Part shown: positions 27,218 to 33,741 of the stretch, in pieces
How the letters are laid out: each line of letters starts with the position of its first letter
Numbering within the stretch: position 1 is the first letter of the stretch
Assembly: GCA_021833665.1 (NCBI GenBank)
Contig: JAKBES010000001.1
Span: 13,489 to 51,235, forward strand
Reading direction: 5' to 3'
Length of the DNA: 37,747 nt
DNA from: Acidobacteriota bacterium
GTDB lineage: Bacteria; Acidobacteriota; UBA4820; DSQY01
Notes under the pieces: generated by a model
Told to the model about the DNA's origin: nothing
Seen by the model: only the letters and a program-made list of their open reading frames with translations
Databases searched by the model: none
Position numbers and translations under genes: made by a program

Positions 27218-28139
27218 CTTCCCCTCCGCCCAGCAGGAGGTACAGCACGGCCATGCGAACCGACACGCCGTTCTCCACCTGGTCCAGGATCACCGAGTAC
27301 GGCCCGTCGGCCACCTCGGAGGCGATCTCCACCCCCCGGTTCATGGGCCCGGGGTGCATGACGATGACGTCCTTATCCGCCAGTTTCAGCCGCTCTTCGG
27401 TGAGGCCGTAACGCTGGTAGTACTCCATGAGGGAGGGGAAGAGGCCGCGCGTCTGCCGCTCGAGCTGGATGCGCAGCATCATGACCACGTCCTTGCCCCT
27501 GATCGCCTCCTCGAACGCCGTACTCGCCTTCACACCGAGGCTCTCGATGTGCGGCGGGAGCAAGGTGGCGGGCCCGCACACCGTGACCTCGGCACCCATC
27601 GTGTTGAGGAGGTGGATGTTGGACCGCACCACGCGGGAGTGGGCGATGTCTCCCGCGATGAGAACCCGGAGGCCCTTGAAGCTGCCCTTCCGCTGCCGGA
27701 TGGTCATGGCATCGAGGAGGGCCTGCGTGGGATGTTCATGGGCGCCGTCTCCCGCGTTGACGATGGACGCCTTGGTGAACCCGCTGATGAGCTGGCCCAC
27801 ACCGGGGCTGGGGTGCCGCATGACGTAGCAGTCGGGCATCATGCGCTCGACGTTGAGGATGGTGTCCACGAGAGATTCGCCCTTGCTCACCGAGGAGGTG
27901 CTGGCGGAGAAGTTCAGGGTGTCGGCGCTCAGGCGCTTCTCGGCGATCTCGAAGGAGGAGCGGGTGCGGGTGGAGTTTTCGAAGAACAGGTTCACCACGA
28001 GCTTGGCGCGGAGGGCCGGCACTTTTTTGACGGGACGCGTGGCCACCTCGGCCATCTTCTCCGCCGTGTCCAGGATGAGGGTGATCTCTTCCGGCGCGAG
28101 CCCTTCGATGCCCAGGAGGTGTTTGTGTCGCCAGTTCAT
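27201..28139 (-). CDS. pyrB: Aspartate carbamoyltransferase catalytic subunit
   Basis: A 312-aa transcarbamoylase that joins carbamoyl phosphate and aspartate in pyrimidine synthesis. The carbamoyl-phosphate motif NSTRTR is at residues 55-60 ([13 protein letters not shown]). It has the [13 protein letters not shown] segment near 135 and the aspartate-side motif [10 protein letters not shown] near 273. No pyrI regulatory gene is nearby, which suits control through PyrR and association with the class I dihydroorotase. The start overlaps the pyrR stop as ATGA, and its end overlaps pyrC. Confidence 0.97.
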
Positions 28140-28693
28140 GGTCTCCCCTCCTTGGCGGTGATCTGCGTCTCCAACAAGAGCGCGTCCTCTCCGTCGAACT
28201 CGGTCAGGTGAAGCTCTACGTGGTCTTCGCGCCGCGTGTTGAGGGAGAGGCCCACGTAGTCAGCCTGGATGGGCAGTTCCCGGTGGCCGCGGTCCACGAG
28301 GACCGCGAGCTGGACCCGGGCGGGGCGCCCCAAATCCACGAGGGCATCAAGGGCCGCTCGGATGGTCCTTCCGGTGAACAAGACGTCATCCACCAAGACG
28401 ACCGTCCGCCCTTCGATGTCGAAGTCCACCTGGGTTCCACGCAGGACGGGAGCCGTCCCCGCGCTGGAAAAATCGTCCCGGTAGAGGTTGATGTCCAGGC
28501 TTCCCACGGGCACCTGCACCTTCTCCACTTCGTTGAGCTTGTCCGCAATTCGCCGGGCCAGAGGCACGCCTCGACGGTGGATGCCGATGAGGGCCGCGCC
28601 TTGGCACCCTTGGAGGCGCTCGGCGAGTTCCAGGGCCAGACGGCCCAGGGTGCGCTGGATTCCCGCCGCGTCGAGGATGGTCTTCCGCTTCAT
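28136..28693 (-). CDS. pyrR: Bifunctional pyr operon regulator / uracil phosphoribosyltransferase PyrR
   Basis: A 185-aa PRTase-fold protein. The PRPP loop [17 protein letters not shown] spans residues 98-114. [12 protein letters not shown] near 65 and [10 protein letters not shown] near 37 are typical of PyrR. In relatives it binds UMP and then a conserved hairpin in the pyr leader RNA to reduce expression, and it also converts uracil to UMP. ATG 28693 has AAGGAG nine bases upstream. The frame is open 33 codons further, but those lie in the leader. It is the first gene of pyrR-pyrB-pyrC, all joined by overlaps. Confidence 0.95.
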
Positions 28694-28730
28694 GGGATCG
28701 GTCTCCTTGGTCGGGGGGGCTGAGGGTGGG

Positions 28731-28747
28731 CGCCCCTCCCCGGGACT
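28731..28747 (-). promoter_or_regulatory. Possible PyrR-binding loop in the pyr leader RNA
   Basis: The leader contains AGTCCCGGGGAGGGGCG, close to the PyrR anti-attenuator consensus AGUCCnGnGAGGnUG as I recall it; the final U is C here. It lies about 40 bases before the pyrR start and 45 after the predicted transcript start. Flanking G-rich and C-rich stretches could pair. I see no terminator T-run, so control would be at translation if it is real. Confidence 0.45.
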
Positions 28748-28797
28748 ACCCCTCACGGACGACGGAAGGGGTGGCGCGGTCTCTCCGGTCATGGTTC

Positions 28798-28826
28798 AGT
28801 TTACCGTGGCCCGTGCCCAGCGTCAA
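28798..28826 (-). promoter_or_regulatory. Sigma70-type promoter of the pyrRBC operon
   Basis: Minus strand -35 TTGACG (28826-28821), 17-base spacer and -10 TAAACT (28803-28798). The predicted start near 28791 gives a leader of about 98 bases. Confidence 0.72.
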
Positions 28827-28869
28827 CGCGGCACGGCCCGGTGAAAAAGCCCTGAAAGGCTGTGTCAGC

Positions 28870-28899
28870 TTGACAGAGGGCGGGCTCGGGTGGTAGGTT
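28870..28899 (+). promoter_or_regulatory. Sigma70-type promoter of the cold-shock gene
   Basis: A perfect -35 TTGACA (28870-28875), an 18-base spacer and -10 TAGGTT (28894-28899). The leader is about 50 bases. It is divergent from the pyr promoter, 43 bp away. Confidence 0.7.
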
Positions 28900-28955
28900 C
28901 GGGTCTCCGGTGAGCCCGTTTGCCGGAGGAACGGTTTCCATGTGAAGGAGCTGCA

Positions 28956-29162
28956 ATGTCTACAGGCACAGTGAAGTGGTTCGACGAGAAAAAGGGATAC
29001 GGGTTCATCACGGAAGATGGCGGTAAGGACGTATTCGTCCACTACAGCGCCATCGTAGGCAGCGGGTTCCGCAAGCTCGCTGAGGGAGAAAAGGTCTCCT
29101 TTGAAGTCAAGGAGGGGGCCAAAGGTCCGCAGGCGGATCAAGTTCAGGCGCTCCGCGACTAA
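28956..29162 (+). CDS. Cold-shock domain protein (CspA family)
   Basis: A 68-aa single-domain OB-fold protein that binds single-stranded RNA and DNA. RNP1 is KGYGFI (residues 13-18), RNP2 is VFVHY (26-30), and the start [18 protein letters not shown] is typical. AAGGAG lies five bases before the ATG at 28956; the in-frame start at 28920 is inside the leader. The gene has its own promoter and a strong terminator, so it is monocistronic. Whether it responds to cold cannot be told, since many family members are expressed constitutively. Confidence 0.96.
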
Positions 29163-29190
29163 CCGCCAACGGTTACGACGGACAAACCCC

Positions 29191-29218
29191 AAGGGGCCCT
29201 CGGGCCCCTTTTCTTTTT
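29191..29218 (+). terminator. Intrinsic terminator of the cold-shock gene
   Basis: Stem AAGGGGCC/GGCCCCTT around a CTCG loop (29191-29210) is followed by TTCTTTTT, 28 bases after the stop codon. Confidence 0.92.
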
Positions 29219-29300
29219 GGGGGGTGCCCCCCTCTGGACATCCTTCGTCCAGCGGTTCATACTTAGAGCAGAATCGAGTTTGGTTTCGGGGGGCCTCTCT

Positions 29301-29762
29301 ATGTTGGACCGTCGCCGAGCCTTGAGAATTTCGCCCAAGAAGCCCATCAAGGCCAAGGTTAAGACGTCCCTGACCGCCCGGGTGGTGGATATCTCCTCCC
29401 TCGGGGTGCAGGTGGAGCTGGCCTACTCTCTCCCTCTGCGCACACGCTGCGACGTGCGCCTGCAAAACGGCGGGGCGGACCTCTCCCTCACGGGGACGGT
29501 GCGCCGATGCACGGTCCTGGGCTGGACGGAGCACGACGGGAAGAAGGTGCTCATGTACCGTGCGGGGCTTGAATTCGAGGGAACAACCCGGGAGCTGGTG
29601 CGGGCGCTGGAGGCCAAATTCCCCGAACTCTTCGAAGAGGCCCGGCCAACGAGTCACGACCTCCTTTCTCAAGGTGAGGCCGCTTCGCCCAAAGACATTG
29701 AAGTGATCATCCAAGTGCAGGACGGCGGAAAAACGGACAAGCCTCCAGACCCAAAGGGCTGA
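29301..29762 (+). CDS. PilZ-domain protein (predicted cyclic-di-GMP binding)
   Basis: A 153-aa protein with one PilZ domain over residues 4 to about 105. The two ligand motifs are intact: R5-x3-R9 in the DRRRALR segment and D30-x-S-x-x-G35 in DISSLG. Binding of cyclic-di-GMP is therefore predicted. A short helical and acidic tail follows. The start at ATG 29301 matches the usual position just before RRxxxR; the ribosome site is a poor GGGGG run. An in-frame start at 29217 would lie in the preceding terminator. It has no signal peptide and is cytoplasmic. It is separated from the cold-shock gene by a terminator and is convergent with the DUF456 gene, so it probably has its own promoter, which I could not place. 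Confidence 0.87.
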   Translation: MLDRRRALRISPKKPIKAKVKTSLTARVVDISSLGVQVELAYSLPLRTRCDVRLQNGGADLSLTGTVRRCTVLGWTEHDGKKVLMYRAGLEFEGTTRELVRALEAKFPELFEEARPTSHDLLSQGEAASPKDIEVIIQVQDGGKTDKPPDPKG

Positions 29763-29776
29763 GGCAGGGTCCTTTC

Positions 29777-29796
29777 CCTTGGTGGGTGGACCAAGG
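29777..29796. terminator. Hairpin between convergent genes (possible bidirectional terminator)
   Basis: A 7-bp perfect stem CCTTGGT/ACCAAGG with a six-base loop fills most of the 34-bp gap between the PilZ and DUF456 stop codons. No T-run follows on either strand, so terminator function is doubtful. Confidence 0.3.
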
Positions 29797-30345
29797 TCAC
29801 CGGCCGGGTTCGCCCCAAACGCTCGCCAGGAGCCACACGACCCGCGCTCCGGCGAGAACCAGGAAGGCGCCTCCGCACCCCAGTTTGGCACCCAATCCCA
29901 CGGCCCGGCCCAAGGCCGCCCCAAGGCCGGCCAGGGCTGCGCGCCCCGCATGCCTTTGGCGGTAGAACTCGGAGGCCAGGGCGCCAAGAAAGGCCCCCAG
30001 GACCGTGCCGGGTATGGCCCCCAGGCCGTACCCAAACCCCGCGCCCACCAGGGCCCCGGCGATGGCGCCGGCCAGGGCGAATAGGCCGCTCCACCGGCTG
30101 CCGCCGAACGTCCGGGCACCCAAGTAGCCCGAGAGATGTTCCGCCACCTCCGCCACGGCGAACAGCACGAACCCCGTCCCGAGCACCCATAGGCGCATGG
30201 CGCGGAACCCCTCTCCCCAGCCGTAGAGGAGAGCGAGCAGAAGCATGATCCAGTTGCCCGGAAGGCTGAAGACGCTGGACGCCCAGGCCAGGGTGGCCAG
30301 AAGCAGGAAGGCGGCGCTCAGGGCGGTCAGCCATTCCGTGGTCAA
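29797..30345 (-). CDS. DUF456 family integral membrane protein
   Basis: A 182-aa hydrophobic protein with about four to five membrane segments. The first ends in the family signature SLPGNWIMLLLALLYGW (residues 27-43). Glycine-rich helices follow, with repeated small-residue motifs (GAIAGALVGAGFGYGLG). These match the DUF456 family, for which no molecular function is established. The only start giving the full first helix is TTG at 30345, with a GAGGG about eight bases upstream; this start is moderately certain. It is convergent with the PilZ gene. Upstream of it (30346-30392) is only the secDF terminator region. Confidence 0.8.
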   Translation of the reverse strand: MTTEWLTALSAAFLLLATLAWASSVFSLPGNWIMLLLALLYGWGEGFRAMRLWVLGTGFVLFAVAEVAEHLSGYLGARTFGGSRWSGLFALAGAIAGALVGAGFGYGLGAIPGTVLGAFLGALASEFYRQRHAGRAALAGLGAALGRAVGLGAKLGCGGAFLVLAGARVVWLLASVWGEPGR

Positions 30346-30449: not shown

Positions 30450-33224
30450 TTAGCGCCGGCGCCCGCTGGACTTCTTGAAGAACTTCTCGAATCCTAGCTT
30501 GTCCCACCACAGCACGTACGGGCTAGCTACGAAGATGGATGAGTAGGTTCCCACGATGATGCCCACGGTCATGACGAAGCTGAAGGAGAAGAGGACTTCG
30601 CCTCCGAAGATGAGCATGGCCACCACCACGAAGAAGGTCAGCATGGAGGTGATCATGGTACGGGACAGGGTCTCGTTGATGGAACGGTTGAAGAGGTCGT
30701 CGTCCTCCTTTTTCCGCTCTTTCTTCATGTGCTCGCGAACGCGGTCGAATACCACGATGGTGTCGTTGATGGAGTAGCCCAGCAGGGTCAGGAGGGCGGC
30801 GATGGTGGGCAGATTCACTTCCACCTGGAAGAGAGACACGAGGCCGATGGCCATGAGCGTGTCGTGGACCAGGGATAGGATGGCGCCCACGCTAAACCGG
30901 AACTGGAACCGGAACCAGGCATAGAGCAGGATTCCGATGAGGGATCCGATGACCGCCTGGAGGGCTTTGTTCTGAAGCTCTTTGCCGACGGTGGGGCCCA
31001 CCGTGTCGATGCGCTGGATGGCGAAGTCACCCGTGACGGTCTTGTCCTTGAGGAAGTTGAACATGGCGTCCGTCATGCCGGGGACCTTCTTCAGGTCGTC
31101 CACGGTCGCCACCATGCCTCCGTGCTCCCGCTTGTAGTCCTGAATGGCCTGGGCCACGGCCTTGCCCTGCTCGTCCGTGCCCGAGATGGCACCGGAACGC
31201 ATGCCGCTCAGGATGAGATCCTCGATGGTCTTGGCGTTGGTGCTGTTCACGTCGACCTTGCCCGCGGCGATGGCCTGCTGGATCGCCGGTCCGCGCAGGC
31301 CGCTCAAGATCTGCTGGCTTCGCGTGGCGAGGGCCACTTCGTCCAGGAGCTGGCCTTCCTTGTTCCGGGCGTCCATGCGGACCAGAACTTCATGATCCTC
31401 GGGCTTGCCGTAACTCACGACGGTCACCGTGCCCGAAGTGTTCTTCTTGATAGTGGCTTCCACGGCACGGGGATCCACCTCGTGGCTGAACCGGACTTGC
31501 ATCTCCTGGCCGCCCCGGAAGTCTATGCCCCAATTGATACCCCGGGTGGCCACGCTCCAGATGCCTATGCCAATGAGGATGGCCGAACCCACGATGAAGT
31601 GGACCTTGTACTTCATGAAGGGGATCTTGAAGCCGCGGAAGGAGTGGATGGGACCGATGGAGACGTCCGTAGGCCGCTTTCCGCCCTTGGTCCGCAGGTC
31701 CATCACGATGTCGTAGATGATGCGCGACACGAAGACCGCCGTGAACATGTTGGCGATGAGGCCCACCGTGAGGGTGACGGCGAACCCGCGCACGGGGCCG
31801 GTGCCAAACTGCAGGAGGAAGAGCGCCGAGACCCAGTCCGTCACGTGGGTGTCGAAGATGGTGATGAAGGCCTTGGAGAACCCGTTGGCTATGGCCGTCT
31901 GGACGGTTTTGTTCTCGATGATCTCATCCTTGATCCGCTCGAAAATCAGGACGTTGGCGTCGATCGCCATGCCCAGCGTGAGGATGATGCCCGCGATGCC
32001 AGGAACGGTAAGGGTGAAGCCGAACGTCGACATGATGCCGACGAGGATGACGAGGTTGAGCAGCAGGCAGAAGTTGGCGTTGATGCCCGAGGCCCGGTAG
32101 TAAATGAACATGAAGGCCAGGATGGCGATGAGGCCGATGAGCCCCGACACGGTCCCCTTCCGGATGGAGCTCAGGCCCATGCTGGGCCCGATGGTGCGCT
32201 CCTCGGCGAAGCGGGGAATGGCTGGAAGGGCCCCCGACTTGAGCTGAAAGACCAGTTCCTGGGCTTCCTGGGTCGTGAAGTTGCCCTCGATGATTCCTCG
32301 GTCGCCGATCTCGGCGTTGATGACCGGCGCGGAGATAACGTTCCCGTCCAAGACGATGGCGAGGGGCTCGTGGAGATGCGCGCGGGTCAGCTCGCGAAAG
32401 CGCTGGCCCGCGGTGGCCGTCAGGATGAAGCCCACGGCGGGTTGGCCGTACTGGTTGGCCTCCACTCTCACTTCCTGGATGTCAGCCCCGGTGATGGGGG
32501 CCACGGTCTTGAGGGCGAAATAAATCTCCGAGCCGAACTTCTCGCGGCTTCCGGGGTAGATGGCCACGTCCGGAGGAAGGGTGCCACCGTACAGCTTCAG
32601 GATGGCTTCGCGGCTCGGGGCTCCCTGCTTGGGATCCACGGCGATGTGCCACTCAAGCTGGGCGGCCTTGCCGATGAGGGCCTTGATCTCGGTGGAATCC
32701 TCCACCCCAGGCAGCTCCACCACGATCTTGTTGGAACCCATCCCCTGGCGGTGAATGGAGGGCTCAGAGACGCCGTACTTATCGATGCGGTTCCGGATGA
32801 CCTCCACGGACTGCTGGACGGCCTTGTCCCGCAAATCGCGCTCGAAGGGCGCCTTGAGCGTGAGGGTATATTGGCCGCCGCCCAGGGCTTTAAAGTCGTA
32901 GTTGTTGAGCGACTTGTCCGCCAGGTCCCGAAGGGCCACCCCCAGGTTGGGGTTGTCGCCCGACACGAAGATCGTGTTGATGTTCTGGTTCTCAGAGAAA
33001 ATCTTGCTGTAAGGGATGTTCTTGGCTTTGAGCTGTTCCTCCGCCGCAAGGATGTCCGTCTGCACGCGGTTGTAAACCGACACGTTCGTGTCCATGAGCA
33101 GGACCAGGTGGACGCCGCCGCGCAGGTCCAGACCCTCCTTCAGGCCATTCTTCCAAAAGAAGAAGACGCAGAGGGCGATGACCCCTATGACCAGAAGAAC
33201 TCGCCATTTGATGCTGTCGCGCAT
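30450..33224 (-). CDS. secDF: Fused protein-export membrane protein SecDF
   Basis: A 924-aa fusion of SecD and SecF, the proton-driven accessory subunits of the Sec translocon. The SecD half has TM1 at about residues 7-23 and the motif LDLRGG (32-37). A large periplasmic domain runs to about 345, then five membrane segments with AIDANVLIFERIKDE near 420. The SecF half begins around 530, with DFRGG at 568-572 and the motif GYSINDTIVVFDRVRE near 816. Between the SecF first periplasmic strands and the VGPTVGKEL segment (742-750) lies an extra stretch of about 88 residues (645-732). It resembles a ComEA-type helix-hairpin-helix domain, and normal SecF has nothing comparable there. ATG 33224 lies 9 bp after yajC, and a strong terminator follows the gene. 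Confidence 0.95.
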   Translation of the reverse strand: MRDSIKWRVLLVIGVIALCVFFFWKNGLKEGLDLRGGVHLVLLMDTNVSVYNRVQTDILAAEEQLKAKNIPYSKIFSENQNINTIFVSGDNPNLGVALRDLADKSLNNYDFKALGGGQYTLTLKAPFERDLRDKAVQQSVEVIRNRIDKYGVSEPSIHRQGMGSNKIVVELPGVEDSTEIKALIGKAAQLEWHIAVDPKQGAPSREAILKLYGGTLPPDVAIYPGSREKFGSEIYFALKTVAPITGADIQEVRVEANQYGQPAVGFILTATAGQRFRELTRAHLHEPLAIVLDGNVISAPVINAEIGDRGIIEGNFTTQEAQELVFQLKSGALPAIPRFAEERTIGPSMGLSSIRKGTVSGLIGLIAILAFMFIYYRASGINANFCLLLNLVILVGIMSTFGFTLTVPGIAGIILTLGMAIDANVLIFERIKDEIIENKTVQTAIANGFSKAFITIFDTHVTDWVSALFLLQFGTGPVRGFAVTLTVGLIANMFTAVFVSRIIYDIVMDLRTKGGKRPTDVSIGPIHSFRGFKIPFMKYKVHFIVGSAILIGIGIWSVATRGINWGIDFRGGQEMQVRFSHEVDPRAVEATIKKNTSGTVTVVSYGKPEDHEVLVRMDARNKEGQLLDEVALATRSQQILSGLRGPAIQQAIAAGKVDVNSTNAKTIEDLILSGMRSGAISGTDEQGKAVAQAIQDYKREHGGMVATVDDLKKVPGMTDAMFNFLKDKTVTGDFAIQRIDTVGPTVGKELQNKALQAVIGSLIGILLYAWFRFQFRFSVGAILSLVHDTLMAIGLVSLFQVEVNLPTIAALLTLLGYSINDTIVVFDRVREHMKKERKKEDDDLFNRSINETLSRTMITSMLTFFVVVAMLIFGGEVLFSFSFVMTVGIIVGTYSSIFVASPYVLWWDKLGFEKFFKKSSGRRR

Positions 33225-33233
33225 GATGCCCCC

Positions 33234-33548
33234 CTATTCCTTCTGGCTCACGAGGGCCGCGATGGCGGCCTTGTTGAAGGTCAGCTTCACGTTGTCGGCC
33301 ACACGCAGGATGACCGTGTCCTGATCCACCCCGGCCACGGTCCCGTGGAGGCCCCCCACGGTTACCACCTGGTCACCACTCTTGAGGGAGTCCAGCATGG
33401 CCCGCTGCTGCTTGGCCCGTTTCTGCTGGGGCCGGATCAACAGAAAGTAGAAAATCACGATGATGAAAAGGATGGGCAGGAACGCCGTGATGGGGTTGCT
33501 CTGCGCGCCGCCACCGCCCGGCTGGGCCATCAACAGGAACCAGGACAT
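33234..33548 (-). CDS. yajC: Preprotein translocase subunit YajC
   Basis: A 104-aa protein with one membrane span (about residues 21-38, AFLPILFIIVIFYFLLIRP). The YajC signature RPQQKRAKQQRAMLDSLKSGDQVVTVGGLHGTV follows, with a small cytoplasmic beta domain. YajC associates with SecDF and YidC. ATG 33548 has GGGAGGT upstream. It heads the yajC-secDF operon, with a promoter about 170 bp upstream and a structured leader in between. Confidence 0.96.
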   Translation of the reverse strand: MSWFLLMAQPGGGGAQSNPITAFLPILFIIVIFYFLLIRPQQKRAKQQRAMLDSLKSGDQVVTVGGLHGTVAGVDQDTVILRVADNVKLTFNKAAIAALVSQKE

Positions 33549-33571
33549 GGGAACCTCCCTCGCTCAACCCT

Positions 33572-33594
33572 AAAAAAGGACGCCCCGCGCGTCC
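33572..33594 (-). terminator. Terminator-like hairpin in the yajC leader (possible attenuator)
   Basis: Minus-strand stem GGACGC/GCGTCC with a five-base loop is followed by six T and lies 23 bases before the yajC start codon. Because it sits between the promoter at 33713 and yajC, it may act as an attenuator. Confidence 0.65.
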
Positions 33595-33680
33595 ACGGCC
33601 CCGCCGGGCCCTCCGCGCCTCCCGGCGCCCGGCGCCTCCGCAGGACCGCTTCGGGTCCCAGGCGGCCAAATCCGGAGAAA

Positions 33681-33704
33681 GGGACACTGGACTTCCAGCG
33701 TCCC
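33681..33704 (-). other. Leader hairpin near the 5' end of the yajC-secDF transcript
   Basis: A 10- to 11-bp stem with one G-U pair, GGGACGCTGG/CCAGTGTCCC, lies immediately downstream of the predicted transcript start near 33706. A second smaller stem, GGACC/GGTCC, lies at 33643-33658. No protein gene is recognised in the 273 bp from 33549 to 33821. Confidence 0.5.
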
Positions 33705-33712
33705 GAACCCGG

Positions 33713-33741
33713 ATTATCCCTCCAAGTGGCTCATTAGTCAA
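33713..33741 (-). promoter_or_regulatory. Sigma70-type promoter of yajC-secDF
   Basis: Minus strand -35 TTGACT (33741-33736), 17-base spacer and -10 GATAAT (33718-33713), only one mismatch in each box. The leader to yajC is about 158 bases. Confidence 0.78.

What the first reader, a model, noticed from the sequence alone, without database searches (positions are those of the whole stretch)
31029..31292. Helix-hairpin-helix-like insertion in the periplasmic part of SecF in a fused SecDF
Residues 645-732 of SecDF interrupt the SecF region that normally runs straight into the VGPxVGxEL segment. The insert contains GKVDVNSTNAKTIEDLIL, then AQAIQDYKREHGG, then VDDLKKVPGMTDAMFNFLKD. This order (V-D/N-N-T-A, A-xx-I-x-x-Y-R/K, V-D-D-L-xx-V-x-G-(I/M)) is that of ComEA/GspK-type helix-hairpin-helix repeats, usually DNA-binding or protein-contact modules outside the membrane. 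A module of this type in the proton-driven Sec motor could contact substrates or other periplasmic partners. The pattern is seen directly; the domain call and role are inference.
Basis: partly seen in the sequence, partly recalled or inferred. Interest (0 to 1): 0.6.

Follow-up and report, generated by a model that had tools for sequence, protein, structure and literature searches.

The report
ComEA-like helical module inside SecF
In many Acidobacteriota, and in a second little-known phylum, the SecF subunit of the protein-export motor carries an extra helix-hairpin-helix domain, related to the DNA-uptake protein ComEA but without its DNA-gripping loops, so it probably serves as a contact point for other envelope proteins.

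Summary
Residues about 645-733 of the fused SecDF (window 31026-31292, minus strand) are an extra domain of about 83 aa, set between helix α2 and the last β-strand of SecF's periplasmic ferredoxin-like domain. It matches Pfam HHH_3 (E 9e-8, above cutoff for the insert alone). Its family profile aligns with ComEA along nearly the whole ComEA repeat (hhalign 97.7%, E 2e-12). AlphaFold gives a confident five-helix module (pLDDT 90-95). Foldseek's best PDB matches are PsbU, ComEA and GspK, though only at weak E-values.

It is not peculiar to this genome: 237 of 396 genomes of the phylum carry it, as do all 4 Coatesbacteria searched. No full-length match was found in 596 genomes of Desulfobacterota, Gemmatimonadota and Marinisomatota. 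In 119 SecF proteins of the phylum the loop is either 24-37 or 96-127 aa. A SecF tree shows a clean loss within Acidobacteriaceae (Granulicella) and several other switches.

DNA binding is unlikely: the GhG hairpins are kept in 7 of 94 sequences each and mean net charge is -3. Best reading: a ComEA-like domain recruited as a protein-contact module at SecF's membrane-distal tip. The role is inferred. No paper on it was found in the library searched.

The parts
30450..33224 (-). secDF, fused SecD-SecF, 924 aa
   Evidence: ORF; Pfam SecD_1st, SecDF_P1_head, Sec_GG, SecD_SecF_C; NCBIfam TIGR01129 secD 462 bits and TIGR00966 SecF 380 bits, both over cutoff
30453..31604 (-). SecF half, residues 541-924, used for structure prediction
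   Evidence: alignment A3; AlphaFold2 mean pLDDT 83.2; best PDB matches are SecDF/SecF structures
31296..31340 (-). helix α2 of the SecF periplasmic domain (residues 629-643), just before the insert
   Evidence: AlphaFold2 model; kept also in SecF proteins without insert
31026..31292 (-). inserted ComEA-like helix-hairpin-helix module (residues about 645-733)
   Evidence: HHH_3 hit, hhalign to ComEA, AlphaFold2 pLDDT 90-95 here, fold search
31044..31166 (-). PF12836 HHH_3 match, residues 687-727
31197..31235 (-). helix A of HhH 1 (residues 664-676), after the DVN (DLN/INLN-type) cap
31125..31175 (-). helix B of HhH 1 (residues 684-700, around AVAQAIQDYKR); the position of the R in YR is R or K in all 94 family members
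31086..31103 (-). helix C of HhH 2 (residues 708-713)
31041..31070 (-). helix D of HhH 2 (residues 719-728); the hairpin before it reads VPGMT, without the second G of GhG
30999..31025 (-). last β-strand of the SecF periplasmic domain (residues 734-742), leading into VGPTVG
33234..33548 (-). yajC, immediately upstream of secDF
   Evidence: Pfam YajC 6.5e-32

Best explanation
A tandem helix-hairpin-helix (ComEA-type) domain was inserted into the α2-β4 loop of SecF's periplasmic domain in an ancestor of most Acidobacteriota. It was then inherited and lost several times. It lost the glycine hairpins with which HhH domains grip DNA and now works as a protein-contact module. The two strands next to the transmembrane helices fix the topology, so the α2-β4 loop, and hence the module, should lie on the membrane-distal face of the SecF domain, beside the SecD P1 head. 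There it would most likely dock a periplasmic partner (chaperone, BAM-type lipoprotein, or another envelope machine) while the proton-driven motor moves. Shown: the domain, its place, its homology, its distribution and the loss of DNA-binding motifs. Inferred: the single early gain, the distal position and protein docking. Not identified: the partner.
For: HHH_3 match (17 of 26 homologues); ComEA homology along almost the whole ComEA repeat; TIGR00426/TIGR01259 ComEA models at 1e-6 to 5e-6, below cutoff. AlphaFold places a separate, confident helical module between α2 and β4, and the insert alone also folds well (pLDDT 88.7). Fold search of the insert alone ranks PsbU, ComEA (8dss, 2duy) and GspK at the top. 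PsbU and GspK are HhH-fold proteins that make protein contacts outside the cytoplasm (own knowledge); Pasteurella ComE1 uses two HhH motifs to bind fibronectin and also binds DNA (PMC2601033, abstract). Carried by 237 of 396 genomes and 147 of 210 genera of the phylum. Divergence of the module (mean pairwise identity 0.26) is near that of the rest of the periplasmic domain (0.31), so it is maintained. GhG lost and mean charge -3.1. In E. coli, SecDF periplasmic domains are placed at the SurA contact (PMC9987972) and, with YidC, at the BAM lipoproteins (PMC7695460), which is precedent for docking here.
Against: No partner, substrate or phenotype is known. No Foldseek match of the insert reaches E 0.001 (best 0.026; TM-scores by query length 0.40-0.51 for the top matches). 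The whole protein falls just under the HHH_3 gathering score (25.7 against 27). Loss in some lineages, for example Granulicella, shows the module is dispensable there, so it could be an accessory of small effect. The distal position rests on topology, not on measured coordinates.
Confidence: 0.5

Rival explanations
1. The module binds the emerging preprotein itself, acting as an extra substrate clamp beside the SecD P1 head, and so alters the stroke or processivity of the motor.
For: It lies on a periplasmic domain of the motor. The SecDF P1 domain is thought to bind polypeptide and to move with proton transport (PMC9987972).
Against: Known HhH domains bind DNA or folded partners rather than unfolded chains (own knowledge). 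A conserved exposed hydrophobic groove was not tested for.
Confidence: 0.2
2. Structural brace: the module packs on SecD's P1 domain, on a second SecDF or on YidC and only stabilises the complex or one of its conformations.
For: Confidently folded and maintained; PsbU is an example of an HhH protein used as a stabilising subunit (own knowledge; fold match). Found both in separate SecF and in fused SecDF.
Against: Lost in some lineages; whether SecD compensates was not examined.
Confidence: 0.2
3. The module binds DNA and couples SecDF to DNA uptake or extracellular DNA, as ComEA does.
For: Clear kinship with the ComEA-type HhH family.
Against: GhG hairpins kept in only 7 of 94 sequences at each hairpin; mean net charge -3.1; K/R at the site I equate with ComEA's hairpin-2 DNA-contact lysine in only 9 of 94 (lysine contacts from PMC9747964; the equivalence rests on my reading of the alignment). 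The same genome has a separate ComEA-type protein with nearly intact hairpins.
Confidence: 0.03
4. The insert is an unrelated helical insertion that resembles HhH by chance.
For: The α2-β4 loop takes other, unrelated-looking insertions in Latescibacterota, Poribacteria and Hydrogenedentota.
Against: Independent hits in Pfam, NCBIfam, hhalign and Foldseek to one family, with the DLN, YR and G landmarks in the same order.
Confidence: 0.03

Closest known systems
SecF / SecDF of the Sec holotranslocon (T. thermophilus SecDF, PDB 3aqp, 5xap; E. coli SecF)
   Same: Transmembrane core, Sec_GG motif, ferredoxin-like periplasmic domain, VGPxVG segment; SecDF structures are the best PDB matches of the whole SecF model
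   Different: Extra module of about 83 aa between α2 and β4; SecF proteins of other phyla mostly have 20-30 aa there
ComEA (HHH_3, TIGR00426), periplasmic or surface DNA receptor of competence
   Same: Tandem HhH with the same order of landmarks (INLN, A..I..YR, G.F.s.dEL, v.G); hhalign 97.7%; 8dss and 2duy among the top fold matches
   Different: Built into a membrane transporter; hairpin 1 usually expanded or degenerate; GhG and basic residues mostly lost; acidic on average
PsbU, extrinsic 12-kDa subunit of photosystem II
   Same: Top fold match (4yuu_U1, E 0.026, prob 0.99); an HhH domain outside the cytoplasm in a protein-protein role (own knowledge)
   Different: A separate subunit of a photosynthetic complex, not part of a translocase
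GspK (T2SS minor pseudopilin)
   Same: Fold match 3ci0_K (E 0.37, prob 0.84); one of 26 inserts hits PF03934 at 0.0031
   Different: A pseudopilin with its own pilin fold (own knowledge); the window's insert has no PF03934 hit
SecD P1 head
   Same: Also a subdomain added to a ferredoxin-like periplasmic domain of the same motor (own knowledge)
   Different: Different fold and family (PF22599), and a standard part of bacterial SecD (own knowledge)

Membership tests
SecF (TIGR00966) / SecD (TIGR01129) | score over the curated cutoff | tested here: met
   380.1 bits against 160; 462.5 against 244.4
SecF | RND-type transmembrane core and ferredoxin-like periplasmic domain | tested here: met
   AlphaFold topology βαββαβ plus TM helices; SecDF structures are the best PDB matches
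HHH_3 (PF12836) | score over the gathering cutoff | tested here: inconclusive
   insert alone 32.5 bits, over 27; whole protein 25.7, just under; 17 of 26 homologous inserts hit at E 0.01 or better
HHH_3 / ComEA repeat | two consecutive HhH motifs | tested here: met
   helices 664-676/684-700 and 708-713/719-728 in the model; hhalign covers 63 of 71 ComEA columns. The Pfam match itself covers only profile positions 23-62.
ComEA (TIGR00426, TIGR01259) | score over the curated cutoff | tested here: not met
   28.4 against 53.1 and 26.4 against 152.35: homologous domain, not a member
ComEA | GhG hairpins and basic DNA-contact residues | tested here: not met
   GhG in 7 of 94 at each hairpin, mean net charge -3.1; K/R 9 of 94 at the compared site
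ComEA | binds double-stranded DNA | not testable with these tools
   needs EMSA
GspK (T2SSK, PF03934) | Pfam match | tested here: not met
   no hit for the window's insert; 1 of 26 homologues at 0.0031

The most novel reading that the evidence does not exclude
The Sec motor of most of a phylum carries a dedicated docking domain, related to ComEA, that ties SecDF to a lineage-specific periplasmic partner such as an export chaperone, an outer-membrane assembly lipoprotein or a secretion machine, so that export and envelope assembly are wired differently in Acidobacteriota than in E. coli.
Probability: 0.3. Interest if true: 0.7.

Novelty: new variant of a known kind. Interest (0 to 1): 0.5.

Why it matters
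SecDF is a widespread motor whose periplasmic domains handle preproteins and contact chaperones and the outer-membrane assembly machine. A conserved extra domain there, in a major soil phylum, gives a marked handle for finding partners. The natural loss within Acidobacteriaceae (Granulicella without, Acidipila with) offers a ready comparison. It is also a further example of an HhH domain reused outside the cytoplasm without its DNA-binding loops.

Tried and rejected
Chance or low-complexity insertion: rejected by profile and fold evidence. DNA binding: motifs and charge tested, not met. A solved relative found by sequence alone: only E 0.061 to ComEA 8dfk. Insert in other phyla: the hits in Desulfobacterota, Gemmatimonadota and Marinisomatota covered only the flanking VGP region of SecF or lay in short ComEA-like frames; L212 and L215, read out, are insert-less Gemmatimonadota SecF, and L216 is a ComEA-type protein. 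Literature: no paper with SecF or SecDF plus helix-hairpin-helix in the library searched; SecDF plus Acidobacteri gave ten papers, none about this by title. Co-variation of SecD with loss of the insert was not examined, and the coordinates of the model were not available for measuring distances.

Full report
WHAT IS THERE. The window encodes a fused SecDF of 924 aa on the minus strand, 30450-33224, directly downstream of yajC (33234-33548; Pfam YajC 6.5e-32). Pfam and NCBIfam recognise both halves well above cutoff. SecF proteins of other phyla mostly have 20-30 aa between helix α2 and the VGPxVG segment; here there are 107, so the insert is about 83 aa.

IS IT AN HhH DOMAIN? The insert alone hits Pfam HHH_3 at E 9.1e-8, 32.5 bits against a cutoff of 27. 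Within the whole protein the score is 25.7, just under. Seventeen of 26 homologous inserts hit HHH_3. NCBIfam's ComEA models hit at 1.3e-6 and 5.4e-6, below their cutoffs. A profile of 28 family sequences (one of them a consensus) against two secreted ComEA-type proteins gives hhalign probability 97.7%, E 1.9e-12, over 63 of 71 columns, from the INLN cap to the last helix. AlphaFold2 on the SecF half (28-row alignment) puts a five-helix module with pLDDT 90-95 between α2 and β4 of a βαββαβ domain. The insert on its own also folds with confidence (pLDDT 88.7). Foldseek of the insert ranks PsbU, ComEA (8dss, 2duy) and GspK first, although no match reaches E 0.001 (best 0.026). The whole SecF model matches SecDF structures. 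Together these make a ComEA-type double HhH very likely.

WHO HAS IT. In 119 SecF proteins drawn from most of the family-level groups of the phylum, the α2-VGP stretch is either 24-37 aa (23 proteins) or 96-127 aa (96 proteins), with nothing between. An insert profile finds it in 237 of 396 genomes and 147 of 210 genera at E 1e-10 or better. This is a lower bound: family f23 (L047, L048, L050) and f67 (L051) have insert-length loops that read as divergent HhH, and few f23 genomes pass the threshold. The phylum is Acidobacteriota: contig G110:C202 has the length and the SecF of a record titled Acidobacteria bacterium. Of these, 23 insert-bearing loci are Acidobacteriota or Aminicenantes (Bryobacterales, Acidipila, Sulfotelmatobacter, groups gp1, gp2 and gp13), and one is Candidatus Coatesbacteria. 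All four genomes held for the Coatesbacteria phylum have it. In Desulfobacterota (247), Gemmatimonadota (200) and Marinisomatota (149) no SecF match at 1e-6 covered the whole insert (phylum names are read from the record titles of the loci used as centres). Other phyla were sampled thinly, so wider occurrence is not excluded.

HISTORY. In a SecF tree built without the insert columns (172 rows, FastTree, many weak branches), the trait needs 14 changes; starred branches force at least 5. In a careful tree of Acidobacteriaceae and neighbours, six insert-less rows including Granulicella form one group (91/91) inside insert-bearing relatives (Acidipila, Sulfotelmatobacter, Bryobacterales). That is best read as a loss, given a homologous insert at the same site all round; L073 is a second, long-branched, insert-less row. 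I read the whole as one early gain in Acidobacteriota and several losses. Counts on an unrooted tree do not by themselves separate gain from loss. Whether Coatesbacteria share it by descent or by transfer is open.

DOES IT BIND DNA? Probably not. HhH domains grip DNA mainly by backbone contacts, and ComEA adds lysines (PMC9747964); the GhG hairpin as the place of those contacts is general knowledge of the motif. Across 94 inserts the GhG is kept in 7 at hairpin 1 and 7 at hairpin 2, and net charge averages -3.1. At the hairpin-2 position I equate with a ComEA DNA-contact lysine, 9 of 94 have K or R. What is kept are the fold landmarks: D-L-N, the R/K after the helix (94 of 94) and the final G. 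The genome has a separate ComEA-type protein with nearly intact hairpins (G000:C89).

HOW IT MAY WORK. The first strand of the domain follows TM1 and the last precedes TM2, so α2 ends and β4 begins at the membrane-distal side. The module should therefore cap SecF on the side facing the periplasm (topological inference; coordinates were not measured). In E. coli the SecDF periplasmic domains are placed at the SurA contact (PMC9987972), and SecD, YidC and, less, SecF reach BAM lipoproteins (PMC7695460). HhH domains already serve as protein-contact modules outside the cytoplasm (PsbU and GspK, own knowledge; Pasteurella ComE1 binding fibronectin, PMC2601033, abstract). Divergence of the module (mean pairwise identity 0.26) is near that of its host domain (0.31), so it is maintained rather than decaying. 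I therefore favour a docking module (0.5) over a substrate clamp (0.2) or a brace (0.2). The partner is unknown.

NOVELTY. SecF is well known, and so is HHH_3. The combination as a lineage-wide SecF architecture has no paper in the library searched, which does not include most subscription journals. Domain databases may already list the architecture. It is a new variant of a known kind.

Noticed in passing
L149, L180, L185, L167, L176, L190 (Latescibacterota, Poribacteria, Hydrogenedentota and an unnamed bacterium; SecF): The same α2-β4 loop of SecF carries other insertions (loop 66-113 aa) with no HhH pattern: a possible insertion hotspot.
   Followed up: no
L047, L048, L050 (family f23), L051, L101: Insert-length loops with divergent HhH patterns, and FSPSI in place of the otherwise conserved VGPxVG segment of SecF.
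   Followed up: no
L015, L016, L017, L018 (family f4): The VGPxVGxEL segment before SecF TM2 is replaced by variants such as IAAAVSGEM and IEASVSKEM.
   Followed up: no
G000:C89:1162-1350: Secreted ComEA-type HhH protein with nearly canonical hairpins (PRIG, KGCG) in the same genome, 75 bits to HHH_3.
   Followed up: partly
window 28139-30345: Neighbours: phosphoribosyltransferase of PyrR type (28139-28792, minus), cold-shock protein (28956-29162, plus), PilZ-domain protein (29301-29762, plus), DUF456 membrane protein (29797-30345, minus).
   Followed up: partly
window 31122-33737 (plus strand): An 871-aa open frame antisense to secDF, most likely a by-product of codon composition.
   Followed up: no
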